NCBI GenBank assembly: GCA_037951105.1
Contig: JBAMJV010003962.1
Span: 62,001-126,000, forward strand
Source of the DNA: Echinarachnius parma
Taxonomy: Eukaryota; Echinodermata; Echinoidea; Clypeasteroida; Echinarachniidae
Length of the DNA: 64,000 bases
Direction of reading: 5' to 3'
In this document: positions 1 to 50,400 of the stretch, one piece after another
Numbering within the stretch: position 1 is the first letter of the stretch
Layout of the letters: each line of letters starts with the position of its first letter
Made by a program: the position numbers and the translations under genes
The notes under the pieces: generated by a model
What the model saw: only the letters and a program-made list of their open reading frames with translations
Told to the model about the DNA's origin: nothing
Databases searched by the model: none

Positions 1-55
1 TCTATTTATTCAGATGATATCTTGATGTATGTTTTCCCCCATTCCAATTCCTCAG

Positions 56-13370: not shown

Positions 13371-14480
13371 TGCCCAATGTGCATCGGACATTTACAGCTT
13401 CTGCACAATGAAAGCACCGCCGGTAGAGACCATGGTAGTGGAATGGTAGATAAGCCAGGCTTTGAGGATCTCAGAAGCATGGATTAAAGAGACTAAACGA
13501 ATGGTTAGGGTTTACAGGAGTGTAAGGTGTGCCCAATGAGCTATGGACAGATCTCACCTCACTTCCAGCTTGTGCATAAGGAAAGCCACTGCAGGCAGAG
13601 ACCCTGGAGTGGAATGGAAGATTAGCTAGGTTTTGAGGATCGAGCATGGATTAGAGACAGACTGAAAGAATGGTTAGGGTTTACCTGAGTGTATAGTGTG
13701 CCCAAATGTGCTATGGACAGATCTCACCTCACTTCCAGATTGTGCACAAGGATAGCCACTGCAGGTAGAGACCGTGGTCTATCAGTAGTGGAATGGGAGA
13801 TTAGCTAGGTTTTGAGGATCGAGCATGGATTAGTGACAGACTGAAAGAATGGTTAGGGTTTACCTGAGTGTATAGTGTGCCCAAATGTGCTATGGACAGA
13901 TCTCATCTCACTTCCAGATTGTGCACAAGGATAGCCACTGCAGGTAGAGACCGTGGTCTATCAGTAGTGGAATGGGAGATTAGCTAGGTTTTGAGGACCG
14001 AGCATGGATTAGTGACAGACTGAAAGAATGGTTTGGGCTTACATGAATGTATATGGTGTGCGCAATGTGCCATTGACAGATCTCATCTCATTTCCAGCTT
14101 GTGTGAAAGGGAGGCACGGCAGATAGAGACCCTGATCTATAGTTGTGGAAAGGGAGAGTAGCTAGGTTTTGAGGAACTAGCATGGATTAGAGAGAGACTG
14201 AAAGAATGGTTTGGGCTTACATGCATGTATGGTGTATGAATGTATGCCCAATGTGCCATTGACAGATCTCACCTCACTTCCAGCTTGTGCGTAAGGAAGG
14301 GACCACACAGAGAGAACCTGATATGACAGTCATTGGAAGGGAGATTAGCTTGGTTTTGGGGATGACAAAATGATGTAGAATGGAAAGAAGACTGAATGAA
14401 TGGCTAGGGTTTACATGATTGCATTTGATAGACTGGGTTATGAGGATCCAGCAAGGACTAGAGAGATCAAAAGCAAAATA
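13371..14480 (+). repeat. Tandem array of decayed copies of the CGRRF1 RING-exon tail
   Basis: The phrase TGTCCAATGTGC (RING CPMC codons, 13214) recurs as TGCCCAATGTGC-like phrases at 13371, 13530, 13699, 13878, 14059 and 14245, i.e. steps of 157, 159, 169, 179, 181 and 186 bases. Each unit carries counterparts of the exon's 3' end (GGACCAATCACTTCTCACTT becomes GGACAGATCTCACCTCACTT; GAATGGTTGGGGTTTACCTG recurs). The last unit regains GACTGGGTTATGAGGATCCA at about 14430. Units are frame-broken and probably untranslated 3'UTR. Confidence 0.9.
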
Positions 14481-22245: not shown

Positions 22246-23191
22246 TGCATTAATGTCATCCCCCCAAATATATGTTATGTGCATGTTCATCAAAGAATTG
22301 CAGAGTTGCAGAGGGTAATTGATGCAATTCTTGTGATGCGTAGGGTGACATCCAATAATTGCAGAGATGCACACACATAGGGGAGATGAAGCTACAGGTT
22401 GCAGACACGGTTACTCTTTCATCCCCTGGCAAGGATTGTGGTTTGGCTATTAATCAGTTCTAAAGGAGTCACTCTGTGCTCAGCGTGTCAGTGTCTCACC
22501 ATGTCTCCATTGTGCTCACCCTCATCTATTCAGCATCAAAACACAAGAGAAGAGAAGAAAGAGGAAAAGAATATTAATACATGACTGAACCTGCTACACT
22601 ACAAATAATGTCACCATTTTCCCCCGATTGCATCTTAAAACTGTAGTACTGATCGTTTATATTACAACATATTTTTCTATCACAATTCTTCACATATTTA
22701 TAAGTGATGATGAAGCAAATTCTGTGGTTCCATAAACAACAAAGTTTGTCAACTCAAAATCAAAATTGAAGCATTTATTCTGGTAACAAAGTATTTTCGT
22801 AATAAATGATAATATGAATTTTCTATTGCACAGCTACTATGAATATAAACTTTATTTCATTATTACAGGTGTCCATGGCAAACAATTATAATGATATAAG
22901 TGGATATTTGTACAGCTTGCATTTCATTTTTAATGCTCATGACACTTTAAAAAAGAGAGAGAGAAAAAAGGAAAGAAAGCATACAACATGTCACTTAACG
23001 ATTTGTAGATCAGGTGTGCAGTGCCATCTTGCAATCGCCTTGCGCACGTTGTGTAATACATACTGGCACAAAGTCAAAATGGCAATCTGCAGTGTAGCAT
23101 TCAATCTTTAAATACTAAACAAGTACTGATTTACTAGAAAACTTAATGTAGATTGATAAAATAAACTAATTTTCTAATCAACTCATTACTA
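22246..23191 (-). other. SAMD4 3' flank / proximal 3'UTR
   Basis: AT-rich, includes the proximal poly(A) candidate at 22851-22856 (minus AATAAA). Degenerate GATGC/TCATC phrases near 22300-22380 look like decayed minisatellite. No ORF with recognisable content. Confidence 0.4.
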
Positions 23192-23401
23192 CTAACCTTC
23201 TAGTGCATGTTCAGTGACACTCCTACACAACCTCTCTGTCCTGTCCATGATGTCTGGCTCACCCAGGCTGTGCAGCGGCGTCTCTACCCTTGTCAGGGGT
23301 GGGTGCTGGGTGGAGAAGGTGGGTGGCCCTGGCTGGGACGACCGACGATTGGGAGCAGACTTGGTCCTCTGAACCAGAGAGTGAGCGTTACCTCCAAGAG
23401 A
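23192..23401 (-). CDS. SAMD4: SAMD4 terminal exon
   Basis: Minus acceptor ttttcacag, starts [20 protein letters not shown] (human HSSVQRTRSLP) and ends [24 protein letters not shown] with TAG at 23194-23192. Phase 0 with the preceding exon. Confidence 0.93.
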   Translation of the reverse strand, partial: SLGGNAHSLVQRTKSAPNRRSSQPGPPTFSTQHPPLTRVETPLHSLGEPDIMDRTERLCRSVTEHALEG

Positions 23402-26400
23402 CTGTGAAAATATAAATAATGATATCATGATTAGGTACAATAATAGTATAACGACTAGATCTCTACCCTTGTCATGGGTGGGTGCTGGGGGGGGGGGGGG
23501 GGGGAATAGGTGGGTGGCCCTGGCTGGGAGGACCAAAGGTTGGGAGTAGACTTGGTCCTCTGAACCAGAGAGTGAGGGATACCTCCAAAGAGACTGTGAA
23601 AAGACAAATAATGATATCATGGTTAGGTACAATAATAGCATCTGGTCAGGGGTGGGTGCTGGAGGGAGAAGGTGGGCGGAGCTGGCTGGGACGACCGACG
23701 ATTGGGAGCAGACTTGGTCCTCTGAACCAGAGATTGAGAGATACCTCCCAAGAGACTGTGAAAAGACAAATCATGATATCATGGTTAGGTACAATAATAG
23801 TATCTGGTCAGGGGTGGGTGCTGGAGGGAGAAGGTGGGCGGAGCTGGCTGGGACGATCGACGGTTGGGAGCAGACTTTGTCCTCTGAACCAGAGATTGAG
23901 TATCATAACTAGATCTCTACCCTGGTTAGCGGAGAATTTCCTCTTTGTTGAGGACCTAATTCTTTTCTCAAGCCACCATAATTATTTAAGTTTGTATTCT
24001 ACTCGTGTCACTAGGCAACCAGGCAAGTTAGTCAATATATTACCTTGATAGTCATTATTGACAACTATAATTTTTAAAGAAGCATGGTCACAAGATGACA
24101 AGACAGCCTGAAATATAGTTACCTCTCTACCATGCCCCAAATTATAAACAGACAAGTGTGTACTTATATGACCATTCTTCCCAATTGGCAATTCAACCAT
24201 TCAAAGAGGGGGAAAACTAAAAGAAAGGAAAGTGTGATAAAAGTTTGTTGACTTGGATGCGGCAAATTACGTGCAGAACTACTGCCCATTTGCCTGGCTC
24301 CCCTCAACTCGCCTCAGCAGGCCTCCCTGTGACTTCCTGAATGGGTAATCACATGCACAGGAATCACCCGACCGGCCTGCCCCTGTCACAAGGACCTGGG
24401 GATCTATACATAGCACAGGTGCATGGCCAATGTGTGTCAGTACAAGTACAAGACGTCCAACTACGTGTAGTAATGTAAACATATAAAGCAGTAATACTTG
24501 TAGTATATGGTTTAAATTTGACGGTACAAGAAGGATACTTCAACTAGTAGTGTCTAGCAATCCGGAGGTCTCAGGTTTGATATAGATCTGCAGAAGCCCA
24601 TTTTTTCTTCGCTCTCTTTACATTTATGTAACAAGTATTTCAGGTCAGTTTTCTTAAATTCTAATTTATTGCCCATATATGAAGCAGCAATAGTTTATGG
24701 TTAATATTTGACAGTAAACCCGAATACATTTTGAACTTCCCAGAAGTAACCCAACAGTAAATGAATCAACCCCTAACAAAATTGCATCCAGAGCCATGGG
24801 TTCATGATAAATGTTTGTTTTAGTATAAGCAGGATTAAGTGTACACTGTAAACTGAAGGGTGGGGAAGGGGGATTGTCAATCTGCCATTTTGATGACTGC
24901 TTTAACATTATCATCACATGTACATATATTTACATCATGATAGGTCCCACTGAACCTATACATTAAAAATAAGAATGATCAAGAGCAGAGCACACTGACT
25001 TAAAGGGGACCACCAGGCAAAGAACAACACATAATTAAATATCAAATAGATACCCAACATTTTGCGAAGGGTTGTGTAATTCATAAACAAAGCAATTAAT
25101 TTTCACCACTTACGGAACCACTGCTATTTCCTGGTTCCATACGGGCCAACATTTGCGAGTGCGCCAATGCTATTCACGCGTACGTTTGGAGAATCCCGGG
25201 CGATTCGTTCGCTCTGCACACATTAGTCTTCGCAATTCAGACCGCATGAACGCATGCTTTAGAATGGCGATGCGTTTTTCAATTACATATTTTTTTCTGG
25301 AAACATATTTTTGTGAACTAATTGATGGAATCGAATACTAAAGATGTTACCTTTCATTTATAACAATATTATTTTTGGGTGGTGGTACCCTTTAACCCTG
25401 CACAGTCCAGCACTTTGTCACTTTGATTCTGGACATAGCCAAAGCCATGATACAGTTTTCAAAAGTCACTTAACCGCTGAGCATTGAGCCCACGTTATCT
25501 CAAGTTGGGTTCTATGTAACAAACGTCCCCTATTTAAACAAATTAACCCATTCAGGACTGGTCCCGAAATGACTTGGGATAGGGCCTATGGAGAATACAT
25601 GTTATAGCGAATCAGTCAGACATGAATGGGTTAAAAACACTTCTGCACAATGTACAGTGGAGCCTACCAAGGATCATTGGCCCCTCACAAACTAAACTAC
25701 GGATCTATAAATAGTTGATATAATTATACAATTTATTTTCAGCTAAGGGTATAAGCCAGATCATGCCCTACTGATTCCCAAGTTAAAGGTCCATTGCCCC
25801 CCTACAACTTTACTAGGGATCTATGCACAGCCTGGTTTATATTGAGTATGTTATGCATTATAAACCCTGATACGTGTCTATCAAATAAAAGCACAAGCAG
25901 AATCAAAGCCTGTGATTATGATGAGCTACAATGATAATTGCAACAAGAATAGCTATGTTCACAATCAACTTTGAACAAAATGAATCAAGCTACACAGCCA
26001 CTCATCGGGAAGGAGAATATGAATGTTGTAATCAAACATTTAAAATTGCAAACCATAAAAGTAAATTCTATTTCAACATCTCAGTGCCTAACAGAGAATG
26101 TTGTAGCTATGCATCTATGTTCAAAATCAACTTTGGTCAAAAGTTTAAGTCAGAACTTGAAAATCATTGGAAGCACCACCCGCAGAAATACTGCCCATAC
26201 CAACGCGAATCCAATGCAGTAAAGAGGGGCACATAAGCTGAAGCTTCAAGCCTCAACACCAAAGTAAACTTAAGTAAGTAAGTAAGTAAAATAATTTTAG
26301 TTACATGATGCCTCGAAGGGAAGGAGAAGTTAATATTGTGATAAAACTATTAAATTGGAGCAACCCATAAAAGTAAAATGTTTTTAAACATCATAGTGCC

Positions 26401-29400
26401 AAATGGAGAATTTATTCTGGGGCACTCATACACACATTACTGTTGTGCGTCTCAGACAATGCATAGACAATGCAAGGCTAGCATGCACTTTTGTCACGCT
26501 AGAGCATGCAATGTCTATGTACACGGTACGACCTAGATATTGTGCATATATAGCGTGTAAATGGTCATAATTTGTAAAAGGACTATTTACATTGTAGATG
26601 TGCTCTGGGGTACATTTTCAAGGAAGATATCATGGACAGAAGTGCCATGGTGTCACAGTCTTTGATACTTTAACCCACTAACTGCTCAGCCTGATGTATT
26701 TCTAGCTGCAGTCTATGGACAAGGCCTGTTATATCAGCATCCAATGCTCTTCAATGGATGTAATCTCCCTCACTCATTGCGCCAAGTGAGTCATGGCATT
26801 AACACATCACAATGACTGGTGAGAACTGACACATGGATTACACATGACAACATTTAAAAGACTCTATTTGAAAGAAGAGGATTAGCTTGTCAGGTCCAGG
26901 ATTATGCGATCTCTACTCATACTCTATAAACAACAAAAAGTTTGCGCAAAATAAATGCAACAAGTCCTAGACACTGGGCCAAAAATTAATTTTGTTTGTA
27001 CTTTTGTACATGAATTTGTGAATTGGAAAGATTGCAAGCCTTCAAGTTATATCACCTATGTGCATACCAATGTGTTAGAAAGCTTTTTGAGGTCAATACC
27101 TGAAGTCATGCTAGCCTGTATTTCTCTCTTTATCTATTTTTCATCGAACATTATTCACATTCTCCACCTTTGTTCATACATTTATCTTTTTTTCAAAGGG
27201 TGGGGAGAAAATAGTAGTCACATGAACCCAAGGCCTAAGATTCCCGGTTCACAGCTCCCAGGCTACAGCTGAATGCTGCAAATATGCCCAATGTGACAAC
27301 ATGGCACTGAACAAAGCAGAGGTGACATCACGTGTCATGTGACGGCAGGAGTCACAAGACGCTGAAAGCCGGCTCCTGACTGAAAGTGATAGCCGGTTGC
27401 CGAGAGACGACTGGAACAAAAAATGGCTCTGCTGGGGATTGAATCACAAGCGAACCAGTGGTGTACGCTAAGGTGGGGGCACTAGGTGTTGATCGGTCTT
27501 CCCATGTGGTAATTCTTGCCCTCTTACTGCACCCCTCACATAAAAGGAGAGAATAAGACAAAACTAAATAAGAGTCAAACTTTTTCAATAAGACCCCGAA
27601 AGGAAGACTTGACAAAAGTAGTCTTTTTGGGCATGTGGTCTGTATAGAAATTATAATTTACAGGTAAAATGTGTTTTATGGGTGCTAGACTAGTGTTCAT
27701 CAAAGACAGGTGGTCTTTATAGGCAGGTGGTCACTAGAACAGGTTTGACTGTACACAACACATATTCCAATTTGTATCAGACCATACCAACATGGGTCCC
27801 CCCCCCCCCTTTGCAGTTTGCCCCCTCTCTAGATTGACCCCTGACCATACCTCAGAATGGAGACTAAGCCAAAGGGACTGTTTGGGGGGTCTGATTCCAT
27901 CACGTGCAGATCTACCCTGAAAATGGCTTACGTTAGGAAACCCATAAATACCCTTAAATACTTGCATATCACGTGAAAGTTATGAAGCTTTGGCATTTCC
28001 TCTATCCTATTCAGAACCCTCTCAAGTATTTCCACCATTCCGTTTTATAGAATGGGTTGATAAATCCCTGCAATCTGATTGGTTGAGAGCAAAATTTGTG
28101 CAGACAATTAATTGTACTGGATGCATGAAAAGTCATGCGTCCGGTAAAAAAATCATGCGTCCGGTAAAAATTTCATGCGTCCGGTAAAAATTTCATGTGT
28201 CCGGTAAAAAATGTCATGCGTCCGGTAAAAAAATCATGCGTCCGGTAAAAAATTTCATGCGTCCGGTAAAAAATTTCATGCGTCCGGTAAAATTATTTCA
28301 TGCATCCGGTAATTTTTCTAATTTTTAATTTTTTGACTTTTTTGGGGGCGTAACAATGCCCATTCTATAGATGATGCGCAAGTTTATTTCGTGGGTCGGT
28401 GGAATTGTTTGCACGCGGTAACTATGGAAACTAGTCTAAACCCACTCGGCTTCGCCTCGTGGGTTTAACAGTTCCATAGTTACCTTGTGCAAACAATTCC
28501 TACCGACCCACTCATACCTGCGCATCATTTGTATACTAATTCATGACCCAACCACAGAAGCTAACCCCAACAACACACTCAGCAGTGTGGAGACTAGGGC
28601 CAAATGGACTTTTTTGTGTGTCAGATTCCACCATGTGCAGAAATACCCTGCGAATAGCTTGCGGTGAAAAACACCTGAATACTTCCAAATCACGTGAATG
28701 TTATGAAGCTTCAGCCTTTCCTCTATCCTCTTCAAAACGTTCTCAAGAATGTCCACCTTTCCATTTTAGTTCAAGCATCAGTCTCCTTCCCATTAATGTT
28801 CAATACAAACTAAGCTCTCTTTTCCCTTCAACCATCATCAAACAGTTCATCCTCAAGGGACATCCCACATCATGAGACCTGACTAACTGCTGAAGTAATC
28901 AAGTTGAGATTAGTGATATAATCCCCCATTAACTAGTGGCCTTTGGGACTTTGTAGTGATACATCATGGGAAATCACAATGTCTTGTAGGCAACAGTCTA
29001 TGTATTTTATAGCCTGTGCATTAGTTATTAAAGCAAATCGACTGTGTGCAGATGAAAAATTTGCCTTTGCCTTAATATGGTGACCCTTAACCATTTGACT
29101 AAATATCTAATAAGATGGTTTGATTAATGTTAGTACATGACAAGTTCATGACATCACATTTAAGATAAGCCCTGTGATCTTTGACCACCGACGGCACAAC
29201 CGCCAAATTCTTCAAGATACATACATACATTTATACAAAGTTTAACGGTATTCCCTCAACCGGTTCTCAATTACGAGAACAAGATATGTACGTACATACA
29301 GACAGACAGATGGACGAACCGGAAAACATAATGCCTCCCTCTGGCCACATTGTTGCGAGGCATAAACAATTTTTTATTTCATTAACAAAAATCAAGGTGT

Positions 29401-32400
29401 GTTTTAAAATTCAAAATGCAACAGACAAATAGGGAAATGGCTTTCTTTGATAAAGATCCTTTGCTCCAGCATAAATAGCTATTTATTGATGAAAAGAAAG
29501 AAACAATGATTGCCCAACATAGCAACATCTACTATTACCAACCATGCTTTACTTGCCAGTGTAGATACAAATTATTACGTATAGCAGCTGATGAAAAAAC
29601 AAACAAATTGCTCGACATAGCCACTACTCCCCAACCATGCCTTACCTGCAGATGTAATCTATACAAATGTAGTAACTAATATTAACAATAAACAATAATT
29701 GCCTGACATATCACCAACTCCTAACCAAGCATGCCTTACCTGCCGATGAAGATACATGTTGCTGCCTGGAGACTGTCTGAACACCTGACTGGCTCCTCCA
29801 AGACCGCTCATGGGCAACAGTGGGTTGAGGTGGGGTTGAGTAATGCTGCCAAACGGTTGTCTACTGACGGGCCTCCTGGCAATGGGCATACCAGCAGGGC
29901 TACTGCTGTGCTCCCCAAAGCCTCCTGAGTAATGGCTCCACCTACAAACAACAAAGCAATTGGTTAAAAGAAAAGTCCATAACCTTTCGTTCAACTAATA
30001 TATTAATCATAGATGGTATAGGGTTGGTAGTCTACAGGTGCTTGTATATGCAGGCTTAACTGTCATATTTGTCCATTAATGCAAGAAATTAAGATAAATT
30101 TGCTGAACTCTGTGTGTGGACTGGAATATAACAAACATCAAACATGGCAGAAACAAATCATGTCTCAGATTTTGAATCCATCATCTACTTAGGTATGAGG
30201 TGCTACCACCAGGCTATCACTAGATCACAGCCAAATATCACAATTAACTTGGAACTAAACCAAATACCAAAGATAAAGACTGCTCTTCTGACTTAATGAG
30301 TCTCTAGGAGGCAGATGCTCTAACAATGCACTGGGATTAAATATCTAAGTTCATGATGGTTCCAGATGATTTCTAAGATTCCTTTTGTCATGGATGAGCA
30401 TACTGACCCCCTAGGTTTGCTGGCATCTATGGATGACTTCCTAGCGTAGGGATGCGGGCTGAACTTCTGACAGTTCTTTCTCCATGATAACAGCTTGCTC
30501 TTCTGTGCCTGGGTGAATGCCTCGTGACTGTAGCACTTGTCCAGTAGTTGCAGGTACTGTGTTATCGTCTCTTCATGGGGCCGTGCGGACATCAGGAGCT
30601 GTGTGCACACTGCACAGAAAGAACAATATCAATAAAAGAAATATGTTAAAAGAATTTAACATTAAGAATATTATGAAGCTCAGCTTTTTATTTTCCTGGG
30701 TGAATACCAGATGATTGCAACTCTTGTTGAGTAGCTACACTGCTACAGGTACTGTTGTATTGCCTTCTTGTGGCGCTATGTAGACACAAGGAGCTGTGTG
30801 CACTCTACATTATTACAGAGAAAGGAAAATTGATCCTCTGTGAGTTGACATCATTCACAGGAATATATTTTTCTTTCATCCTAACCCTGAAAAGAGTATG
30901 AATGTCTTTCAAACCAAAACAAATATGAACCGGTAAAAAAAGTTGCAGGGGAAGGAAACGCTGGAATTTTTGCTTGCTGTTACTGATAAGTGCAGAATTC
31001 CTGTCGTTTCTAGTCATATATTTCCTCTTGAGTATCACTAATAGTGGAAATAATCAATGTTTTTTAAACCACTATCAACTGTTTTGACTAGAGCAGTGGA
31101 GGCAGCCATGTTTTTCAACGGTTCCGTATGAAACGTCATCTGAGCGCAGCTGAGCGTGCACTAACAAAAGCAGGTTACGTAACCACTGACAAAGCAGCAG
31201 ATTCACCAACAGCTGAACCGTTGGAAAACATGGCAGCCAGTGCTCAGTCAAAATAGTTGATAGTGGTTTAAAAAACATTGATTATTTTACTATTAGTGAT
31301 ACGAAAGAGGAAATATACGACTAGAAGTAACCGGAATTCTGCACTTATCAGTTACAGCAAGTGAAAATTCCAGCGCTTCCTTCCCCTTTAAGTGTACACT
31401 AAATGACCATAATATGAGCCAATGGATAGATATCATAACAGGCCTTTAAGAGAAGAATTGAAATGATCCATTAACGTCATGAGTTTTTCTGAAAGTGATA
31501 TTTGAGACTTCAATTGTATACCAATACCATACAAGATTCTTGTGAATGATGTGTGATAGTTTCTTAGAAAAGGGTCACTATTTACCTTGCAAAAAGGTGA
31601 ACATTTATGTCAGATTTATCACCTACTGCCTATTGATTTTGGAAGGATTTAAAGGGATCTAGTAACTTTGTTGACATGTGCAAAATTGAAGAAGGGGTGA
31701 TATAATGTGTATTTCTGTAATTATCTGATATGTCCACTGAGTGATGTGTGAACATTTCAAGGTAAATGAATGTCATATGAAAGAGTAATGAGCAAAAATG
31801 CAAACTGATATTTGCTTACTCATTGCACTGACTTTCTACAGTTTAAATTATCCAGTGGATAATGTCAAAAAACCAAACCTTTCAATTATAAATATCTTTT
31901 TAAGGAAAGAGAAACGTGGAAACCAAAACCTGTTCCATGCTTGTATTGGTAATACAAATACGAGGTATGTGAGAAATGCTAGAGTTCTAAGTAAGTTTTG
32001 TGGATTTCGGCATCATAAATACATCATAAATACCTCTGTAATTAGGGAGACATTAGAAAGAAAGAAAAAACATTCTTATAGCCTTACAGCCTATCAAGTT
32101 ATCAACAAGGTAAAGAGAAATGTGGAAGCTTCAAGACATTTTGTCTGCATTTGACTATAAGATAATGGATCATTTTAAGAGAAGCTTATCAATTTTCTCA
32201 CACAAAAACAAACTTTGGAGCAGTTTGGCTATAAGGAACTACATGTAAATCTGGTAGGGGATTTCCATTTCAACACATGTAAAATGCCTTTTGTTGTAAT
32301 GCTTTATTCATGTAAAGAACAAGATAGAAACTGAAACATTAAGATATAAATGATAGCACTTAAAGACAAAATAACTTCTACATCATCCTACCATGCATGC

Positions 32401-35400
32401 CAAAGTCGCCCCATACAATCATGCGTTAGAGACATATAAATAGACATGAAGCTCACTGTAGAAGTACAGGAAGCAGTGTGTTTGTATGTGTAGCTCTTCA
32501 AACCCCAAAACTGAAATGACTGGAGGCACAGCAAGACCGGAGGAAACATCATCATTAACCCTGATATCATCAGTAGAGAAGGGGAAGGGGACTAACTCAC
32601 ACTTTTAATTCTCAGATAATCATGTTCAAATTAGGGGCGCCTTGTAGAAACACACTTTAATAGAGTCTACTGCTTTATTTGTTACAATATTCCCCAAATT
32701 AAAAATAATAATTATTTGACAACTTGGCTTTACATACAGAAGGCTCCAACCTACAAGGTCAAGTTGGTATGCAGAACTCAATTCAGCATAAATTCAGGAT
32801 AGTATAAAATCATCTTTGTTTGATCAACATCGGTTCAGAGACGGCTGAAATATCCATAAATATAACAATTTGTAATAAAGCTGGGGCCCCAGGTTTATTA
32901 GAGAATTTTGAACCAGCCATTACAAATTCAAAAAAATGCTTCCTCTTTTCAAAAAGTTACAAAATAGGTATTTAAATAGTTGTTGGTTATTTCTCTATCT
33001 AATCACTATTTCATCAAAACATCACATGCACAATATTTTATACAAAATGGTTGAAACCGATGAGTGTTTAGAGAGAGCCCTCTTACATTTTAACGGCTCT
33101 TTTTGAATGATAACATGATCTTTACTACATCATTTGTAATTTTGTGTTCCTTTCTAGTTATAACTATTAGTTTGTAATGTAATGATGCAGTTTTTGGTTA
33201 CTAAAATTCAGTTTCACCAAAACTGTACTCTCATTACCAGAACTCAACTATCCCTTTAATGCCATTCTCACTCTCACACAACGATATGTAAATCAGTGCC
33301 AAAATGCTGCCCCGTCCAACTTATTTTATCAGCTCCTCATATTTTCCTTGGACTACATGTGACACTGAGATTACACAGTGTCATGGGGGGAAGAAGTGAC
33401 TGCTTTATTTTTTTCTTGCGTCTACGTAATTTAATTTGATGTGGCCTAATAGATCACATCCAAGCATCCCTGGCAAGGATCCCATGGCAGTCTATATATG
33501 GTTCCCCACACAACCACTGGCTGGACACTAGCGCTGTACACTGTACACGCAATCAAGATTTGTGCTGAGGACTGCATATTGGCCAATTATGAGAGACATG
33601 GATCCTACAACATGTCCTATCGCTACTTTCTGTTCGTTAGTCTCAAGGAATAGATAATTGCAATAACATGATTAATATCATCAACAAATAATTTTATTGC
33701 CCATATTTATTAATTTTGTTTCCAAATTACAGTGCTCCCAAGTAATATTAGCTCCAAGCAATAATGTGTAGCTCATGTTCACCTATTCACCCCACAACCT
33801 TACTTAAGTCCAAAAAACAAATCAATGTACCAAAACCTGGTAATCTAAATCCATAAAATCTACCATAAAATAACATCAAATTCCAGATTACTCTATTCAC
33901 TATTAAAAGTAATCGTAAATTTGTTACTGTAGTTTACTACAAAATAAAATATAAAATACAAAATAACATAAAATCATTAATGACTGTGTTCACTAAGATT
34001 TTTCATTAACAGGTTTCTAATAACATTTTTTTGCTCACAGAGCAACCTTTAAATTGATTATCTGATGACTTTCAGGAGCATATATAATAAGAAATCCTGA
34101 TTATTCATTTTGAAAGGAAATATTTAATTCATTACTATGCCAACTGGAAAATCATTTTTTTTGTGCTAATTATAAATCAACATTACAGACAGATCTGAAA
34201 TGATAATTAATTTAGCTGGAGCTCTGTGTCTTCTATTTGGAGGCAGGGTGATTGCAAAGGTTATGTTGTTGATGAGATTAGAGTCTATGCTCATTATAGA
34301 GCTGTGCATTGTGGCAGGATGTAGCCAATCTAACTCATTCAGTGCTATCAACAACTTTTGCAATACACAGATTAAGACAAGATTAGGTCACGTATTCATT
34401 AAAAATCAGGGTACCAAAAAGATTCCCTGCCAGTTTGCATCGAATCTAAAAAGAAGTATGATATCTTTATACAAATATTGATCTAAACCAAAGCAGCATA
34501 CATGTATACTCCTAAAAAATACCCTTTTTAGAATCTACATGTAGGTTAATTGGGATATGTTGTCTTTCTTTTGATCAATGCTTTTTCACAAAACATTGAT
34601 TTAAAAAGCCCAGAGTGGGTAATCAATCCTTTCCACACTGCTAACTATCTAGTAGACATTAAATGTTCTTCCAGGGAAGCCGCCTCTTGACAATTTACTT
34701 CTGATAATTCAAGTTGGAAAAAAATCTAAATAGTGATGACAAAAAGAAATCATCCACTATGAATCTTGTCTTGAATCGCCCCTTGGGTGTCATCCAGGAA
34801 AGGGGGTGGGAATGAACACGATATAAATTTCAGCCAATTCTCATGGCGCCACTTTTGCTGCTAAGATGCAAATCCCAGGGACTTTATACACCGAGAGTAA
34901 CAAACTCCAGTTTTGAATACAATATGACAACAAAATTCTCAAAACAAACTCATTAAAAGAGGGGAAAAAGACCAATTTGGTGATGCGCACATCATAAATC
35001 TTTAATAATCATCATATACATGCTCATCCTCAGATGATACTTTCTCATCTAATGGTAAAGTTTACATCAGACAAATTTGAACTGGGAGTAAAATACTGAA
35101 CAAATAAAACAAAAGTAGGTGTCTAGATATAAACCAGGAGTTAAAAAGGGATGTACACAGGGGATGCATGCGCCATTAAACTGAACCAAACGTAATGATA
35201 CTACTTTTGTGTTGAAGATGTTCATCCTAGAGACTTAACATATATACGTGCGTTATAAAATCCAATTACAAAAACAGATGGAAACTATCTAGGCCCTAAA
35301 AAGACCCTGGGAGATACAAGAGGGAAATAAGAATAAGGATGAACATGTCATAAATCTCAACCAATAATTGTGCAGCCCCTTTTGCAGTCATCCTTCAGCT

Positions 35401-38400
35401 GATTCTTGCGTATCACTAATTTTTTCTTGGGTGAAAAAATAGCCCAAAGAGATTTAAACCTGGGAATATTGAACCGTTACTTCAATGATAACGAAAAAAG
35501 GTTTGAAATGTTTTAAAATGTCTAGTCAATTGTAGTTAGTGGATTGTGTGAAAATGTTTGATCTATCACCTTTACAGTTTTGTGTTATCCCTCAGGTGAT
35601 TATTGCTCATCAAACTGCAGATGCATGTATACATAACCTCAGAGGTATCAACATTTACACATGCTATTAAAGCAAAGGCATAATAAAATTCTACCCAAAA
35701 TATCATACCCTTTTATCATAGCTAAAAGGTTCATATAAGCTAGAGCAATGATTTGAAGTCTTTTCGTCACCTTATACAAATAATCTGAGAGCCCTATGTT
35801 ATGTCTGGCCGTGTGTTTTGAACTTAAGCAGTAAATAAGTGGTATCGGTTACATTTGTGCAGGGAGCATAAAACTTGAAACAAGAGCCAAATTGTAAATA
35901 TATATGGTCTACATAGTAATATTTGGTATCAATTTGAAGGAAATTTAATAGGATTTAACCGACAACTAATCACAAGTAACATGTTGTTTGTGTACTTGCC
36001 TTTTAGTACTTACCAACCTACTAGCACAGAGTAATCAGTTTATGTGTTGTTCTTTACCTGGTGGTCCCCTTTAAAGGACAATTTATAAGACTAATTGTGT
36101 ACAATTCAATGCAAACTTGTTGTAATAGTAACATGTTGCATTAGTATGCTCACTATTCAAACTGTTGGCTATAAACTTGGTAGGACATACCTGTATGGTC
36201 ATTGAGAAGTCAATAGGCTATAGGTTCATATTACAAATTCATTTTCAAGCGATTTTCCCTATTTCATCAAATTTATATCAATATTTCCAGAAAATTCATG
36301 TTTTATTATCATTAACTATTTCTAAAGATATTAGCTTCACTTGCAACTGCATTTTTGAAATCCTTAAACAATTTCCTTTTAGAATATGTACATGTATGTA
36401 TACATAAAATATCGCAAATATCCTTCCCTGAACCCACAACTGTGAAATTTGCAGAAAAATGCACATGTAATGTTTACTGGCCCAGTTCAAAACAGTTCAA
36501 AACACACGGCCGTCTCAAGACTCGGCTAGAGCTACTTACTCTTTCCCATGAATCGTGTGATTTGTCCAGGTAGATCTCCCTCCTGGACAGGCATGGAGCC
36601 CTGCTCCTGGTCCGAGACGGAGGAGGAAGAGAGGCTGGAGTCGGGGCGCATGTCCCCCACCACTCCTGCTGGGTTGGGCCCACTCTCCTCCCCCTTCCCC
36701 TGCTTACTGCTCCCACCACTGCCTATCCCACTGGATTTCAGCTCCTTCATAGCCTGGATCGGTGTGTTGATGATGTTCTTGATGTCGTTGAGGGCGTTTC
36801 GCAGATTCTTTGCACTCCCCGCGGACATTATTTCCTGCCATGGATGAAGTAAAAGAGACAAACAAATTGATTAATATCATACTGGAAATTCATATACATG
36901 TACTAGCTATTCATGTTTATTTCTATGCGCTCCATGTGGACCATATCTCCTACCATGGGTGAAGCGATAGTGAGACGAACAAAGATAAATTACTATCATA
37001 CTGTAATTATGAGCAAATTTGTATGATGTTGTTGATGTTGTTGATGCCATTTCGCAGATTCTTTTTGCTCCCCGTGGACATTATTTCCTGCCATGTGTGA
37101 GGCAAAAGAAAGACAAAATTTGAAAAAAAATCAATACCGTGTACTAGTAATTTCTGCAAATTTTGAAGATGTTCTTAAAGACATTGAGGTATGCAGATTT
37201 GTTGTGTACTATTGGTGACTTTCAAATGCGAGGCAAAAATGGGACAAAAAGGGGGAAATTGATATCATCTGAACATTAATGGCTTACAAGCAACCTCAGG
37301 GAAAATTGATTCATTGAAGTGTTTGTCCTGGAAAAAAATGACCTTTCAATATTTCTTTTGTTCAACACAACTGCAGGAGTGTGGTAATATTCACAGAACA
37401 GTTCTAGCAGATTGATCACACAAAAATAACATTGTAAACATTCTATTATTGACTGATCTTCAATGTAATGCTTCATGATATGGTTTCAAGACTAACTAGC
37501 TGCAAAGTTGCATTGTAGTAGTTGTATAAATGTACAAATCTTAAAGATTCTGGCACTGTTCTGGCAACCTTATTTCAGTAACACCAGGGGCAAATAAATG
37601 CTGACTCTCTAGTTGATCATTAGATAGAACCTCCGTGAACCAATCTTGTTTTTCAGCTCTCTCATGTTGCCCTGCATCATGACGTCAGAGTAAATTATCT
37701 ATTTTCATTTCATTGCATAAATAACTGGGGTTTCTTCTTGAAAATCAATAGAGAAGTTCACAGGGAAACGGGTGCACTGCAAACGAGCGTTGCAGAATGT
37801 TATCACTCCACACGCAAGTCGGGCAAACCACATTACTTCAGTGGTGAAACTAATTAACACTGGGAGAAATAAGGACATCTATACATCTATAGACATAAAC
37901 AACATCATAACACAATCTAGCTAATTGTACTAGTGCAATAAAAAAAAATGTAGATAAACTATACAGAACGTGTGAAAAGAAATATGTGTAGAAAATAACT
38001 AGCAATTTGAGGGTCTCAACATAAAAAGGTATAGAGGAAAGTAAAAGCATGTCAACTGGTAACACACACACAGAAACAGAAATTAAGAGAGAGAGATTAC
38101 TTAAGAGATAGAAAGTGAGGTAATCAATGGAGAGAGTGGAATGAGTAGGGTGAGAATGAGAGAAGAAGGGGAGAGAGTGGGGAAGGGTGTGACAGAGGAA
38201 GACAGACAAATTGAAATATATAAGAGAAAGGATGAAAGTGGGAGTGGGAAAGGGAGAGAGTAAGACAGGAGGAGGGGAAATAAAAGAGGGCAAGAATGAG
38301 TGGTGAAGGGAGAGAGGGGGGAGACAAGGGGAGACAGACAAATGGAAATATAAAATAAGAGAAGGGATTAGAGTGGGAGTGGTAAAAGGAGAGACGGTAA

Positions 38401-41400: not shown

Positions 41401-44400
41401 AAAGGGGAATAATTTCATCTTTCGGATCATTATTCATATTTTTGAAGGTATTAGAAGGAATCATTTTTACAAGGTAGAGACTTGTGACTACTTGGAATTA
41501 TTTTAGCTTGTAAAATAACAAAGATTTAAGTGATTTCATTTCCCGATTTGAAAAGTTATTTTAGCTATGCTCAGTCCCATGTGTGTTTTTTTGTGTTGGA
41601 GATTTTATGGACCATAAAATAACAAAATCGTACATGGAAAAGAGCTTAGTTTCATCAGTTGATGACTCTTAGATGAAACTGCTCGATTCTAGCTTTCGTT
41701 TTGTTTATTCAGTGATGGATTTCTTTAATGATGGTGGTAATTTTAACACATAACTTCCATAATTTACCAATTAATGACCAAGTAGTCATGACCATTGTTT
41801 TTCTTTGTTTGTAAATTTTATTTTCGGGCCACCAGAAAAAAAGATAATTTCGAGCATTGGAATAACAAATGAGGCTAAACATTGCCCAGTACCCTGAAAC
41901 TATGAATATGGTTATTGTTTTAATTTTACTTTTGATTTTCCTTATTTTTTTCGGGCCAGTAGATTTTGGTTTCGGGCCACCAAAATTGGAAAAATTACTG
42001 GCCCGACCGGGCCACCAGCAAAAAAAGTTAATTTCGAGGGTTGGTGTACAGCAAGATTTTATACCAAATTCTGAAAAGCGCTTCTGAAAATATTCCTAAA
42101 ATACATCAAACTAAGGCTAAACTATGCAACACTATTATCCCCACAACATTTTACACTTTTCAGCTATATTTTGCTTGAACAATTGACATTTCAGAATGAA
42201 AGCAAGTTACCATACATTTTGAATTATATGAATACAAACTTAGTTTGATACATTCACCCAGTACACCCATGTACACAGTACATAGTCCTGGAAGTTCATG
42301 TATCTTAGTAGGCCTAAACTGCATGTTTTGCTGATAGCCAACAGCAAGAAATTACATCAGGGCAATTCTGAGCAAATGAGGACAAAATGTCACAATGTTA
42401 CCACAAAATAAACCCTTTCGGCATATTTAATCCATAAAATATTTATGTTCTCATTGTTATTTGTACTAAAATGGTTGCAGTTACCACACAAATACTGGAA
42501 GGATTCTTTATTTAAAAAGGGTGAATTTTGGGGTAACACCATGACGCTTTGCTTAGAATTGTTCATTACGTAACTATGTTCCCATGGCAATGAGCGGCTA
42601 CACTCAACATGTATGTAGAGACTGGAGACAACAATCAACTTGTACCCAGTTGTATTCCCATGAAATGCAGAAGGAAGCTTGAGTCACAAGAAAACAACAC
42701 ACGAGTTGACATGTCTAGGGCTTTACTTGAATACAAAATATCTACATGTACATTTAGTATGTCGTAATACTTGACTTGATTGCGTAAATATAACTTCATA
42801 GAAATGTACCACATACTTCATAGAAATGTACCACATACTTGAAAATGTTTTCTTCTCCAAGGGATTATTCCCACATACAATTTCTCCCTAAAACGACATG
42901 ACAGTGAAAACTTCAAGATAACTTTCCATTTCTAATGCCTATAAATATAGACAGACTTTCCATGCAGAATATAATGACTGCAGTAAGACACAATGGAAAG
43001 TGGCACTCATCCAAATGTTTATTATCCTTACCAAGAACTTCCCCTTTTCTCCCAAGTAGGAAATTAATCAATGTAGCTCGCTAACAATGCATCCTCATTA
43101 GCAAGAACCTAGACATGGAACATCACTGTAATTATCTTTCATTATTACAGTTAATAAAACACTCTCTTAGGATTTCAGATATGACTTAGTACTCAGAACA
43201 CACTGAACTTTCTTGTAAGTTGGAAGCACGAGAATTAAAAACATTTAATGAAAGATTAAAGAAAGGCTCTCATTGCCATTGGAACATACATAATTGATAA
43301 ATCAGTTTCATCGGTTAGTAGTAATACTGTAATAGGTTTTAAATGGATAGCAAAATACATAACTGAACAATTTCATGCATTAACACTCTCACTGCCATTG
43401 GCACATGACTCTTGGATAAAAAAACAAAAACAATGGACATGTTCATTGGATTTTAGTATGGGGATTAAGCATTATGGGTAACAGAAAAATGAAATAAATA
43501 ATTTCTTAATCTCTAAATGCCACATAAACAGTACATTGTGATAACTCAATGGACATTGTGTTGGTTGGAAGCAACAGGGTTAAGTGAACATGACTGACAG
43601 GTGCCAACTCTGAAGGCCATGTTGTAATGAGTTGCTTCCGTTTCTCTTTGCTCCCTTGCCTACAATGTCACTCACTTCCTTTCTTGTCTCATATCATATG
43701 CGAATTGTCGCCACTAACCCCCTTATCAAGTCACCAAATGTAAAGTTGAGAACATGGAGAAAATAGTCGACTTTGTCCATGCACTGTCTATTTCACTGCT
43801 AGATTGCTGATCCTTTTTTAATACATTGTTGTTATTAACAGAGTATAACAAGTATAACAAGTTATATATCATTGGAAAGCTGGAATTGTGGAGAATTCTG
43901 AAATACGCGGATCAGGAAATTTAAATACTGCAATTTTATTAGGTTTTTTGTGAAGACAGGTCACATATATATCTTACATTGTTCTTCTTAGGCATGTGTT
44001 GAGAGCATGGGAGCCAAGTGTAAGCAATTCATGTGTTTATTCAGGGCTAAATTAGCAATGGCCTGCTGCTGGCTTGGCCCGCTGGCTGGCCCAGGGCCAC
44101 CAAAAATGAGCTTTGGACTACCAATATTACATACTGCCATATTTCATTTGTATAACTGGGCAACCAAATGTAACAAACTTGTTATTTATATTCATTGCTT
44201 TGGGGCAACCTTTATTATATACTGGGGGTAACTTATATTCATAAATGTCTAAATCCTATTTGCCTGAACAAGCCGCAACGACGAAAACTAGGTTAATTTA
44301 TATCCTTGGTTTATTATTTAATTAAATATTAACCACAATGGAAATGAGCCATGCGCTCTGAGAACCAATCCATCCTTTCATGTCATAATAAAGTAACACT

Positions 44401-47400
44401 CTTGATAGCTATTTCAGTCTGTGTTGTGTATCATAAGAATGTACCTGTAGCCAAACATGTCTATAAAGACTACTGAAGATGGACAGAAATGGTGCTCCTT
44501 ATAAGCAAGTGGTCTCTATAGAAAGGTTCATTTACATGCAAACTGCTCTTCAGGGGATCACAGATAGCAGCATTTACAGACAGGTTATGGCAGGTTTGAC
44601 CGTATATTCCTAAACCCAGTCATGTGACTGTGTAATCAACAAGCAACCCTGATTTAGAGCAATTCAACCACATCCCATCAAAGTACACTATTTTGATAGC
44701 CCTGTCATACCATGGATCTCAAAGTTGACTAGACATTTACCATGAAATATTATGGCTGAAAGCAAGACTTAAAATTTGGTTTGGGGTAACTCCTAAAATA
44801 ATAGCGATAAAGGAAGTTATGACCAGCAGGAAGGATGCAAACTGTAACTTGAAAGATAAAAATGGTTGAATGATCAAGCAGAAAATGTGAAATATAAACA
44901 AATGATCTTGAATGGAAAGCTGTGTAAGTTAGACAAATGATGACCAGCGTCACAGCAAGCAAAGTGTCACAGTGTTAACTACCAAAATCACTTTGTCGTT
45001 TGAATCAGGCAAATATCTATAACGCTAATGCAAGTATTTCAGTATATTTCAAATGAAAACATAAATATTTGAAGAATTCCAATGCCAATGGGGTTATTTT
45101 GCAGAACACTTTGGTATTTTGTCCATGTTTGCTTTAATAGAATTACCCCAAAAGACAATGAAAGAACATACAATTTCTTCCTTTATTAATGATATAAAAG
45201 TTAAATGTGGTGGACCATTTGATTGGTCCACTAGAGCTACAATAATGCTTTGGTGGACTATTGTTCACCTTTGCATCTTATATAAAAACAATTTAAACAA
45301 ATTTTTTTCTTACCTTTTCTAGAGTTCTGATAACAGGTTGTCTCTCCTTTAATTTCAAGATGCTCAGCAGAATCTTATTCCTTGCACCTTTTGTTACATC
45401 CTAAAAGGGGGGAAAATTGCATTGAAGATTTATTAATAATGATAAATTAATAATTACTTTCATACATAGGAAAATCCCCTAAGGAGGTAAATTTTATAAC
45501 ACGAGAATCAGCATTATGATTTGCATTATTTCATACAGGCAATCATGGTTATTTTCTTTGTGCATCAAAGATTTGATTGTAATTTTCTGTAAGGTTCATA
45601 TCGGGAAAACCCCTAGTTAATGATTCAATCATGATAACAAGAGAATAAACATTGTCCGCCATAGTGCAATTGTGGTTAGTTTCTCTGTGAATTGAAGATA
45701 ACATATGGCAATTTTTCCAGAAGGTTCACATAAAGATCCCCTAATGGATGATGGTGATTAATTCAGTCATGATAACAAGAGAACCAGCATTAGGTCTTGC
45801 ATTTCGTGTCTTGTTTTCTAAAAATAATTATGGTTATGTTCGTTTACATGTAGCTCATTATGCTGTAATCAACAGTTCATCCACAATCATTGCACTGATT
45901 TTATAATCAATTCTTTGGAAAGTTTATACTCTTTTCATATTCACTACTTATTACTTTCACAATAAAACTACCCATTGTTTGAAGTTAACTCATTTTGCTC
46001 TAATACTGACTAATAATAAAATGACAAAATTGATGTCACAGCCATCACGGTCTAAAAATGGCAAACATGGTTATTGAAAAAAAAAGTGCCTTGAAATTAT
46101 TTGTATTCAATTTCATGCCCTTTGGGTAATGTTATGTCATGATTTAGTAGCCCATTGCCTATGGGAACTTGATGGGTCCTGTTACAGCCCTAGAATGGTG
46201 GGGGGGGGGGGGGGGGGGGGTTGCCAAATCTAGAACGGAACGGATTAATCCATGCAGAAGCTACTATCTTACCATTTCCTCCAGCTGCTTCTCTGTGAGC
46301 CCCATCATCTCATTGTAATCTAGGCTCTCAAACAGACCTGTGTACTTGTGTAGTCTCAGACTCTTCAGCCAGGAAGGTACATCTGTCGATCAATCAATAA
46401 TGTATCCATTAAATCTAGGCTCTCAAAGAGACCTGTATACTTGTGCAATGACGCAATAGTTTGTCAATTGAATATTCACTTAAATCATACAACTACTCCT
46501 ACTTCTACATTGTATCTATAGTAGATCAATCATATAATTATTCAATGATTTGCTCATCTCTTTTATAGTATTAAATATCATATTTTAATTTTCCCTGTTT
46601 TCTCTGAATATGAAATTCTGTCAATTGTAATTTGTTATTTGTGATACTGTTTTTTAACATCATCGTTTGTATGCAATGAAACTGAATCAGATTTGGAGTT
46701 AAAATAAATGAAATTGGAAATTATCAAAACTTGCTTTGGCAAAAGACAATTTGTCTGTTAAAAAAAACACACACACAAAAACATTATTTAATTCCCTATG
46801 AAGGAGTAAGCAAACAATTAGTAAATGAACCCCTCGAGACCACCTGTAAATAAAGACTTCCTTTTATACATTGTTTGGGAGATCCTTTATAGTGAGCCCA
46901 TAACATCAAGATTCAAGATTAATTGAATGATCAAAATTGGTTGATCGACAATTGATTTTGATCCTGTAATTAATCATACAATTGATGTGATATTGTATGT
47001 TAAGGGACCCAGGCTTGAAAACATTTGATGTAGCAACAAATAACTGTGAGTCTTACCCTTCATGCCACTCTTCTCTTCCAGGAAGCTGTTCCTCTTTCCT
47101 TTATGATGTCCGTCCTCTGCAATACAAACAAATTAAACAGTTTTCCTCAGATTAGAAATGACAGAGATTTGGAAAGTGCATACCACCACAACATCCTGAC
47201 TACTATATCATTTGCTACTTCATTAATTACAACATTCAACTACCCGATGCAAATGATGGGAAGTTTTTTTCTTTCATCAGACTAAAGGAGATATGCAATA
47301 TATGTGCAAGCAGGTTTGTAAGTTTAAGTCTAAATAAAGAGCACTCAGAAAATTCCCCCCAACAATTCTCCTTGGAGGATAGTGCAATAGTCCTCAGGTG

Positions 47401-50400
47401 ACAAATCAGGCTCCTTGAACCAGGAACTAAAGATAGAGGCAGAATAATTGTCCTCAGGAATAAAAGAGATGTACATAGGGTATATCTTATCTGTCTGTGC
47501 TCATAACATAGTGTAATATTATACTTTTCCCTCACCTGACGACGGTCCTGTGACATTGACGGCTGGTGGGGCAGACATGGTGGTGGTCAGTGGTTGGTGG
47601 AAGGCTGTTGACCCTGCCAACAGTCCTCCCCCTCCTCCATCCCCTATCCCTCCCCCTGAGTACCAGTCATTGACTCCTCCCGCCCCTAGGAGGCCCCTGG
47701 AGGACCCCTCAGATGTCTGATGCGGGGCGTAGGGGGAGGCCTTGAGGAACGGGGACACGAGGTGGTCTGATGAGAGGGAGGTTGAGTAGCCCCCTGAGGA
47801 GGAGGAGAAGGAGGGTTGTTCCTCAAACTGACTGATCCACTTGGTGCGGGGGAGATGCTCCTCGCAGCTGAGGGCGGGGTGGATGACCAGGTAGGTGTAC
47901 AGCTGGTGGGCCTCCTCCAGGAGAACGCCTTTCTCCTGCAAACCAAAGTAACCACATTCAAATAAGTGCATTCCAATGATATTCCATACAATACAATGCA
48001 ACTTGCAAAAGTCGTCACTGCCTTTTAAAATCAATGCAATGCCAATTTATCGATTGATACCTTATTTGTCATCAAGCAATGATAAATTACCATTATCTTA
48101 CAGAATAGTTTGACATGAATGAAGTAGTCACATTCAATTCTTAATATTCTGAAAATTATTCAATACATTCAACATCATATTCTTGATATTCATCAGGTGG
48201 ATAGATCATGAATAAATGGTAATCCTGCTCAAAGTTGGTCATACATTCAATAGAAATTACTGATACTTTCCCTTTATTTACAAGTAAATTCATACTGTTT
48301 TACAAGGTTTAATTTCAAACTGACATTGGAAAAAACAAAAAAAGTCTTTCTTTTTTTTAAAGCCAAAGTTCACATACTAGATTGAATGGATTGAAGTAAT
48401 CAACATTATGACAACATTTGTATCATCCAATGATTGACAATATTGGACATCATGTACCTGCGTGTATGCCAGTAGTTCTGGGATAAGCTTGAGGTACTCT
48501 GTCTTGGCCTCGGTGCTGCTGGGCTGCAGTAGTGGAAGGTGGGACAGGACCTGGGCCAGGGCTTCATCCTTACTCTCATGGGTCAACCCTCGCACAAAAT
48601 CTAATAGAGAAAAAAAAACATAAGATTTCAATTATACTATAGTTTAGCTAGAATAAGCTTTGGTTTTCTATTGTCTTGGCCTTGGTCCTGTTTGGCTGCA
48701 ATAGTTGAAGGTGGGACAGGACCTGGACTAGGGCTTCATTCTTGCTCACATGGTTCAACCCTTGCACAAAAACTAATGGACAAAGAACATAAAATATAAA
48801 TTGTTATGTAGTTTATCTAACAGTGTAAAACAGCTCACGACTGGGATAAGCTATGGGTACTCTTGTCTTGGCCTTGGTCCTGTTTGGCTACAGTAGTGGA
48901 AAGTGGGACAGGACCTAAGCCAGGGCTTCATCCTTGCTCTCATGGCCCATCCTTTACACAATATTATCATAACCAGAACGTCAATGACGTAGCGCTCATC
49001 CGGCATCTCGCAACATCAAAAATCGCAAATTTCATGTGGTACACTTTTCAACTGGTCAAAAAATAAAAATTTGATGCCCTGGAAGGGACATAAAAATAAA
49101 ATTTAAAAAAATTAGAGTGAACAAAATATAAATTTGATGCCCCGGAAGGGACATGGAAAAAAAAAAAATAATAATAATTTTTTTAAATGTAAAAAAAAAA
49201 ATCAATAAAAAAAAAAATCAATAAATAAAAAAAAAAATCATAATAATAATAATTTTAAAAAAATAAATAAATAAATTTAAAAAAAATTACCATAATGAAT
49301 TAATGGAGACAAATTTCAAAATTCTGTGTAGAAGTTTAGTGTACCAAACTTAGCTCTACCAGATAAAGCAAACCAAATCAAAATCGGTCAAGAAATGAAG
49401 GAGAAGAAGCATTTTTTGTGATTTCGAATAAATTTGCATAAATTACCATAGATAATGAATTTCACGATTCTGTGTAGAAGTTTTAAATCCCCCTCCTAGC
49501 CCTATCTTATGAAACAATCAGAATCAAAATCGGTTGAAAAATAACGAATAAGAAGCATTTTGAAAACTGTGGACGGACGGAATGACGGACGGACGGATGG
49601 ACGGACGAACGGACGACGGACGCCACACCATGGCATAAGCTCATCGGGCCCTTCGGGCCGGATGGGCTAAAAACAGTTAATGTTGTTGTAATGTGCAATG
49701 TGTAGGACGGATGAATCATCGATTCACACATAATTGTATATGGAGAAAATTAGCAATTTAGCCCCCAAATTACTGCAAAGAGCCCCCGAAAATGATCACA
49801 CAGCTCCTTTAATTTCTCTTGGTGTAATATGTAAAATACATTTCAATGTGCTATTTTAAGACAAGCAAGCTCGTCAAATAGCCCCCAACCAAACATGTTT
49901 TTATCCACTGCCCTGATAACATAATTTATAATAAGCAATTTTCCAAAGGGCAATGTGTTTTTTATGAGATACTTGTTCATATCCAGTTATAAATAGCCAG
50001 AGAGAGTGAAAAGGAGAAAAGAGAGATTTAATGGTATGCATTAAAATGTATTCATAACATTTCTTGAGGATGTGACATAGGGGGAAAAACACAACCACAA
50101 TTGAACTGAAAATAACTTACATTTACGCGAGTTACAAAATAAAAATCACTTTCTATCTTATTAAGCAGTCTATAGTTTCATGTCTTGTTTTCCCCGATAT
50201 ATGCCTCTTACAAACAGGATGTCATTAGGTACTTGTGTACATTACAATGGCAATCAGAAGGAGAGATGAGTACCAATGGATTTATCGAGACAGAATGTAT
50301 TTGAAGTACAATGTAACTGCTTTAGCCTTCAATCTTTCTATTTTTGGATCTGTTACACGCAATAATATTTTTCGATAATTGTTTTCTGTTCTTTGTATGT

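What the first reader, a model, noticed from the sequence alone, without database searches (positions are those of the whole stretch)
23192..48968. Recurrent partial tandem duplication of SAMD4 exons into the adjacent introns
Seen directly: decayed copies beside exons at 23401 (three), 30609 (one), 36834 (three), 46382 (one) and 48600 (two), plus the donor side of 29740 (two). Most lie 5' in transcript sense and several include the acceptor. Divergence rules out simple assembly duplication. An intronic, non-exonic triplication at 45467-45850 shows the process is not strictly exon-directed, so exons may just be where it is easiest to see. This could be a general short-tandem-duplication mutational habit of this genome and a source of cassette exons.
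Basis: seen in the sequence. Interest (0 to 1): 0.75.

Follow-up and report, generated by a model that had tools for sequence, protein, structure and literature searches.

The report
Decaying partial exon copies in introns
In this animal genome short stretches of DNA are often repeated on the spot, so many exons sit beside decaying partial copies of themselves; a 2026 paper described the same pattern on small GC-rich bird chromosomes, but here it turned up, without high GC, in about four in ten of the exons sampled.

Summary
Six SAMD4 exons have neighbouring direct copies of part of the exon. Five are tandem copies spaced about 100-195 bp; the sixth (46412) is only a 34-bp match. The copies decay without coding constraint and none examined spans a whole exon, so they do not look like cassette exons.

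The window's own 1.2-Gb genome could be searched. Of 39 distinct kinase exons elsewhere, 18 have such copies, all direct and none inverted. Window density (2.6 local direct repeats per 10 kb) is ordinary for the sampled stretches (2.1-3.5). Of 662 unique random segments, 185 have a local copy. A conserved exon stays recognisable beside an old copy about 1.7 times longer, so about 47% of exons should show one; 24 of 57 do. The habit is therefore widespread and not clearly aimed at exons.

The closest known phenomenon is 'exon stuttering' on bird dot chromosomes (PMC12954441, 2026). Here it occurs at about 37% GC, on many contigs, with a narrow unit size (167-247 bp at kinase exons) that is not explained. 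One near-identical contig pair differs by one unit; the shorter one's exon looks like a crossover between exon and decayed copy.

The parts
23199..23401 (-). SAMD4 exon E10 (source exon, open frame)
   Evidence: tblastn with recalled SAMD4A; frame and splice sites
23460..23900 (-). three decayed partial copies of E10 with acceptor side, offsets 179, 353 and 515 bp
   Evidence: one extra base after the acceptor in two of the copies
29741..29942 (-). SAMD4 exon E9
29480..29689 (-). two decayed copies of the E9 donor side (last ~20 bp of exon, donor, intron), spaced about 100 bp
30409..30609 (-). SAMD4 exon E8
30688..30809 (-). one old copy of the E8 acceptor side (67%), offset 187
36541..36834 (-). 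SAMD4 exon E7
36921..37204 (-). decayed copies of the E7 acceptor side: 36921-37006 (74%), 37023-37123 (82%), weak 37163-37204
   Evidence: genome search lists E7-like DNA only here
46273..46383 (-). SAMD4 exon E5 (SAM domain)
   Evidence: only place listed in the genome
46412..46445 (-). 34-bp copy of the middle of E5, 32 of 34 identical, not a full tandem unit
48458..48600 (-). SAMD4 exon E2
48648..48964 (-). two decayed copies of E2 (offsets 170 and 363), lacking the last ~20 bp of the exon and the donor
12804..13355 (+). CGRRF1 last coding exon (RING finger)
   Evidence: Pfam zf-C3HC4_3; tblastn with recalled CGRRF1
13371..14440 (+). about six decayed copies of the last ~150 bp of CGRRF1 coding sequence with the stop codon, spaced about 157-183 bp
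45459..45844 (.). intronic, non-exonic triplication (~136 bp spacing, 64-67%)
25953..26411 (.). intronic local direct duplication (71%)
27853..28768 (.). intronic local direct duplication (77%, about 730 bp apart)
34808..35385 (.). intronic local direct duplication (61%)

Best explanation
This genome makes short head-to-tail duplications of unique DNA in many places, often with units of about 140-260 bp. Shown: the copies are local, direct, partial and decaying, and they are common at exons of other genes and in random stretches. Inferred: a duplication with one end in an exon and the other in the flanking intron (or 3' region) leaves one complete exon in a working place, so it is tolerated; the extra partial copy lies in non-coding DNA and decays. 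Once two units exist, unequal exchange or slippage adds and removes units, sometimes with the coding exon as partner. Exons look like hot spots mainly because they hardly change, so an old copy can still be recognised beside them.
For: 18 of 39 distinct kinase exons have local direct copies, against 250 of 1000 random segments. Inverted copies: 0 of 39 kinase exons and 0 of 18 window exons, against 117 of 1000 controls. Density per 10 kb: window 2.60, contig flanks 2.09, arbitrary contigs 3.46, E. coli 50 kb 0.20. No clear exon excess: 185 of 662 unique control segments times about 1.7 (hand integration) predicts 47%; observed 24 of 57. With the exon masked and only decayed copies compared: 9 of 39 exons against 162 of 1000 (p 0.18). 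Decay: flat codon-position pattern. Partial: 18 of 18 nearest kinase copies lack one end of the match. Turnover: L049 and L048 are 98.3% identical over 932 bp but differ by one ~170-bp unit, and the L048 exon is like the copy in its 5' part and like the exon in its 3' part.
Against: Without the detection correction exons are in excess: p 0.004 against all controls, p 0.014 against unique controls, and the correction rests on an assumed exon rate (0.15 of neutral) and constant age. Unit lengths at the 39 kinase exons (167-247 bp in 18 of 18) are narrower than in controls (97 of 250 hits in 160-250, 79 below, 74 above); within that class exons are 18 of 39 against 97 of 1000, more than a 1.7-fold correction covers. 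Exceptions to the narrow size: L073, dropped as near-identical to L060, has 131 bp; with wider queries the nearest offsets of L070 and L071 are 147 and 84; E9, E5 and E7 in the window are shorter. One of the nine masked-exon cases (L071) rests on a 21-bp minisatellite. The sample is one protein family plus three genes, and control stretches may contain some exons. The chimeric L048 exon could be an assembly artefact. No RNA data.
Confidence: 0.72

Rival explanations
1. Exon-directed duplication: exon borders themselves (positioned nucleosomes, transcription- or splicing-linked breaks) start nucleosome-sized tandem duplications.
For: All 18 kinase-exon units are 167-247 bp; the six new ones of the second batch fell in the range set by the first twelve. 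In the 160-250 class exons are 18 of 39 against 97 of 1000 controls. Seven of 16 window events touch exons against a shift mean of 2.55 (4 of 1278 shifts reach it).
Against: Total frequency matches the unique-DNA control after the detection correction. Comparing decayed copies only gives no significant excess (9 of 39 against 162 of 1000). Control arrays of this kind also mostly have 140-260 bp spacing (124 of 162). L073 and three window exons have shorter units.
Confidence: 0.2
2. Selection keeps the copies as regulatory pseudo-exons or decoy splice sites.
For: Several copies keep AG acceptors or a consensus donor.
Against: No coding constraint; the acceptor AG is lost in the outer E2 copy; similar local repeats occur in arbitrary stretches of the genome.
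Confidence: 0.05
3. The arrays are internal repeats of transposons (pearl/Helentron type), not duplications of host DNA.
For: One such element with a 146-bp internal repeat and a GGAC microsatellite occurs twice in the window.
Against: The genome searches with E10 and E7 list no other place, and the arrays begin inside host coding exons.
Confidence: 0.04
4. Assembly artefact from merged haplotypes.
For: The assembly seems to keep haplotype-like contig pairs.
Against: Copies mostly differ from exons by 5-33% and from each other, carry indels, and paired contigs share similar arrays (L035/L036, L039/L040).
Confidence: 0.04

Closest known systems
Sequence stuttering / exon stuttering of avian dot chromosomes (PMC12954441, Genome Biol Evol 2026; abstract and sections 7, 9 and 16 read)
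   Same: Direct tandem repetition of the edge of a coding exon, with its splice site, into the adjacent intron; exon intact; repeats of purely intronic origin alongside; imperfect copies; length variation between individuals there, between near-identical contigs here.
   Different: In chicken 190 of 236 such introns lie on dot chromosomes and the authors suggest a link to high GC. Here it is on many contigs with a background GC of 0.376 and no GC difference between exons with and without copies, in 24 of 57 sampled exons. In chicken 1 to 44 copies (median 4) with exon parts of median 36 bp; here mostly 1-4 copies within about 700 bp (CGRRF1 about six) and a narrow unit of 167-247 bp at kinase exons.
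[quoted passage not shown] passages read)
   Same: Tandem duplication of a segment within a gene, in the potato case spanning an intron-exon edge.
   Different: Here no new intron or exon is apparent; the copy decays inside an existing intron or 3' region.
Short satellite-like arrays of the oyster genome carried by Helentrons (PMC7492417; passages read)
   Same: Many short dispersed arrays with monomers of about 140-180 bp.
   Different: The main clusters there are transposon-borne and dispersed; the two exon arrays searched here (E10, E7) were found at one place only.
Tandem exon duplication giving mutually exclusive exons (recalled; search listings only)
   Same: Exon copy beside its source.
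   Different: Copies here are partial, lack one end of the exon and evolve without coding constraint.

Membership tests
[quoted passage not shown]
   direct only. For CGRRF1 the copies lie in the 3' region, not an intron
Sequence/exon stuttering | copied part reaches the exon border and includes the splice site | tested here: inconclusive
   seen for E10, E9, E8, E7, E2, not for E5; kinase exon borders were not determined, though 16 of 18 alignments run past the domain match on one side
Sequence/exon stuttering | extensive length variation within the species | tested here: inconclusive
   one contig pair (L048/L049) differs by one unit; alleles, recent paralogs and assembly error not separated
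Sequence/exon stuttering | association with GC-rich dot chromosomes (an association, not a definition) | tested here: not met
   background GC 0.376; mean exon GC 0.526 with copies (18), 0.533 without (21)
Mutually exclusive / cassette exon duplication | whole exon with both splice sites and open frame | tested here: not met
Helentron/pearl-type arrays | dispersed copies with transposon ends | tested here: not met
   E10 and E7 listed at a single place in the genome; transposon ends were not looked for separately
Intron gain by tandem duplication | a new intron with both splice sites from the duplicated segment | not testable with these tools
   no RNA data; copies lie inside existing introns

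The most novel reading that the evidence does not exclude
This genome duplicates unique DNA in nucleosome-repeat-sized steps of about 170-250 bp at a high, continuing rate, and coding exons recombine with their own decayed copies, so that each array acts as a private reservoir of exon variants and of intron length change. If so, stuttering is an old, GC-independent animal process.
Probability: 0.3. Interest if true: 0.75.

Novelty: new variant of a known kind. Interest (0 to 1): 0.62.

Why it matters
Exon stuttering was described in 2026 as a peculiarity of bird dot chromosomes with a suggested link to high GC; its authors report not finding it in other vertebrates except GC-rich gerbil genes. 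A genome at about 37% GC in which roughly 40% of sampled exons carry such copies makes the GC explanation insufficient and gives a richer place to measure rate, unit size and mechanism. Conserved exons work as fixed markers that let old local duplications be counted, which helps to separate a real hot spot from an easily seen one. The copies may also confuse gene prediction and could feed changes back into exons by unequal exchange.

Tried and rejected
Whole-window self-BLAST missed the E5 match, so the scan was redone with 200-bp tiles. A 70-bp match beside an ATXN3 exon (1544-1773, score 22) and one at 8131-8736 (score 23) are below the threshold of 24 and were not counted. Exon targeting looked strong at first, but the total excess disappears when the conservation advantage and dispersed repeats are taken into account; the size-class excess remains. 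Local inverted repeats are nearly as frequent as direct ones in the background, so part of the background direct count is probably transposons. The C1q family (28 matches) was tried as a hint about the animal group; the organism was not identified. A single SAM-domain exon fits a non-vertebrate, since vertebrates have two SAMD4 genes (recalled). The MHC class I search did not complete. Confidence in the best explanation was lowered from 0.75 to 0.72 on rechecking, because of the shorter unit in L073 and the uncorrected p values.
Full report
WHAT WAS CHECKED. The window holds parts of three genes: ATXN3-like (+, 53-3516), CGRRF1 (+, coding end at 13355) and SAMD4 (-, 59939 to 23199). The last SAMD4 exon was not found, and the CGRRF1 and ATXN3 exon lists are probably incomplete; 18 exons were used.

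OBSERVATION. Self-alignment confirms direct copies beside six SAMD4 exons. E10, E2, E7 and E8 have copies on the acceptor side and E9 on the donor side; E5 has only a 34-bp match. A scan with 200-bp tiles finds 16 local direct events at score >=24 in the window and none in 20 shuffles. Seven touch exons: E10, E9, E8, E7, E5, E2 and the end of CGRRF1. Of the other nine, three are inside a dispersed element (48971-49673 and 53908-54567) and one is a purine-rich tract.

ANATOMY. The clear copies keep one exon edge and lose the other. The E2 copies lack the last ~20 bp and the donor, the E10 copies the last 80-90 bp, and the E9 copies hold only the donor end. One complete exon remains in each case. 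Between exons and copies, differences fall on codon positions 1, 2 and 3 in 44 of 241, 31 of 237 and 39 of 237 sites, summed over seven exon-copy pairs of E10, E2, E7 and E8. So the copies evolve without visible coding constraint. Frameshifts or stops are present in several.

GENOME. The window is C3960:62001-126000 of a 1.2-Gb assembly of 14,790 contigs. Searches with E10 and E7 list only the window, and the SAM-domain exon is listed once. Local direct events per 10 kb: window 2.60, seven other stretches of the contig 2.09, thirteen arbitrary contigs 3.46, 50 kb of E. coli 0.20. The window is ordinary for these samples.

INDEPENDENT EXONS. From 133 kinase matches I chose 36 exon-like ones without stop codons, then 14 more (13 with a stop inside the match), each with about 700 bp or more on both sides. 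Of these 50, 26 have a local direct copy (17 of 36; 9 of 14). Eleven were dropped as near-identical to others, eight of them with copies, leaving 39. Eighteen of the 39 have a local direct copy at score >=24, against 250 of 1000 random segments of the same lengths (p 0.004). The controls come from 19 of the 20 fetched stretches and may include some exons. Inverted copies: 0 of 39 kinase exons and 0 of 18 window exons, against 117 of 1000 controls. Translations of seven loci show the SAMD4 anatomy, for example three partial copies before the exons in L060 and L043, and copies after the exons in L039 and L050. The nearest copy is partial in 18 of 18. The kinesin listing, of which no letters could be fetched, shows overlapping partial domain matches close together on C10331, C4289, C12482 and C1423.

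EXON LINK. A conserved exon stays similar to an old copy longer than two neutral copies do. In simulation the detection ratio is 1.0-1.5 up to 0.2 substitutions per site, 1.5-3.4 at 0.25 and 3.8 or more at 0.3 and beyond. Integrating over constant age by hand gives about 1.7 (assumption: the exon changes at 0.15 of the neutral rate). Among 1000 random segments, 662 have no relative elsewhere in 341 kb of sample and no inverted copy; 185 of these have a local direct copy, which predicts about 47% for exons. Without the correction the exon excess over these is significant (18 of 39, p 0.014); the exons were not filtered in the same way, since 22 of 39 have relatives in the sample, as alleles and paralogs would. 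Observed: 18 of 39 and 6 of 18, together 24 of 57. With the exon masked and only decayed copies compared, 9 of 39 exons against 162 of 1000 controls qualify (p 0.18; one of the nine, L071, through a 21-bp minisatellite). So the total frequency gives no clear sign of exon targeting.

UNIT SIZE. Minimal offsets at the 39 kinase exons are 167-247 bp in 18 of 18 cases with copies. The first twelve set the range and the six new ones of the second batch fell inside it. Of 250 control hits, 97 lie in 160-250, 79 below and 74 above; in that class exons are 18 of 39 against 97 of 1000. This is unexplained. Against a strict rule: L073, dropped as near-identical to L060, has 131 bp; wider queries give 147 for L070 and 84 for L071; SAMD4 E9, E5 and E7 show about 100, 95 and 115. 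A filter against mis-splicing could remove short units, and a nucleosome-sized mutational step could set the upper limit; both are inference. GC does not matter here: mean exon GC is 0.526 with and 0.533 without copies.

TURNOVER. L048 and L049 are 98.3% identical over 932 bp, but L048 lacks one ~170-bp unit. Its exon reads like the decayed copy in its 5' part and like the exon in its 3' part, apparently still open. The simplest reading is unequal exchange between a decayed copy and the coding exon. An assembly error, or paralogs instead of alleles, is not excluded.

KNOWN. A 2026 paper (PMC12954441; abstract and sections 7, 9 and 16 read) describes 'sequence stuttering', called 'exon stuttering' when an exon edge is repeated, in 115 chicken genes, 190 of 236 introns on dot chromosomes, with a suggested link to GC. 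The pattern here matches in anatomy but differs in setting, frequency, GC and unit size. Searches of the held papers listed no other report of this kind for another animal; only the top rows of the larger result lists were seen, and most subscription journals are not held.

VERDICT. This is a real, widespread local tandem-duplication habit of the genome that overlaps exons at about the rate expected from its general density. It is not a SAMD4 peculiarity and not a visible source of cassette exons.

Noticed in passing
window 48971-49673 and 53908-54567: Two 88% identical copies of a ~0.7-kb element with an internal 146-bp repeat and a GGAC microsatellite, resembling pearl/Helentron non-autonomous elements (resemblance recalled).
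   Followed up: partly
window 10799-59939: CGRRF1 and SAMD4 are neighbours, as I recall they are in the human genome (14q22): perhaps an old microsynteny.
   Followed up: no
L048 and L049: Near-identical contigs differ by one exon-copy unit and the shorter one has a chimeric exon, suggesting exchange between exon and decayed copy.
   Followed up: partly
G000 kinase and kinesin listings: Many matches come in pairs on different contigs with equal scores: the assembly seems to keep both haplotypes.
   Followed up: partly
window 29638-29650: A decayed copy of the E9 donor keeps CAG/GTAAGG; it could act as a cryptic or recursive splice site.
   Followed up: no
window 21511-22248: 22-bp minisatellite of about 33 copies downstream of SAMD4 E10.
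   Followed up: no
whole sample: Local inverted repeats are also dense, about 2 per 10 kb, yet none was found at the 57 exons.
   Followed up: no
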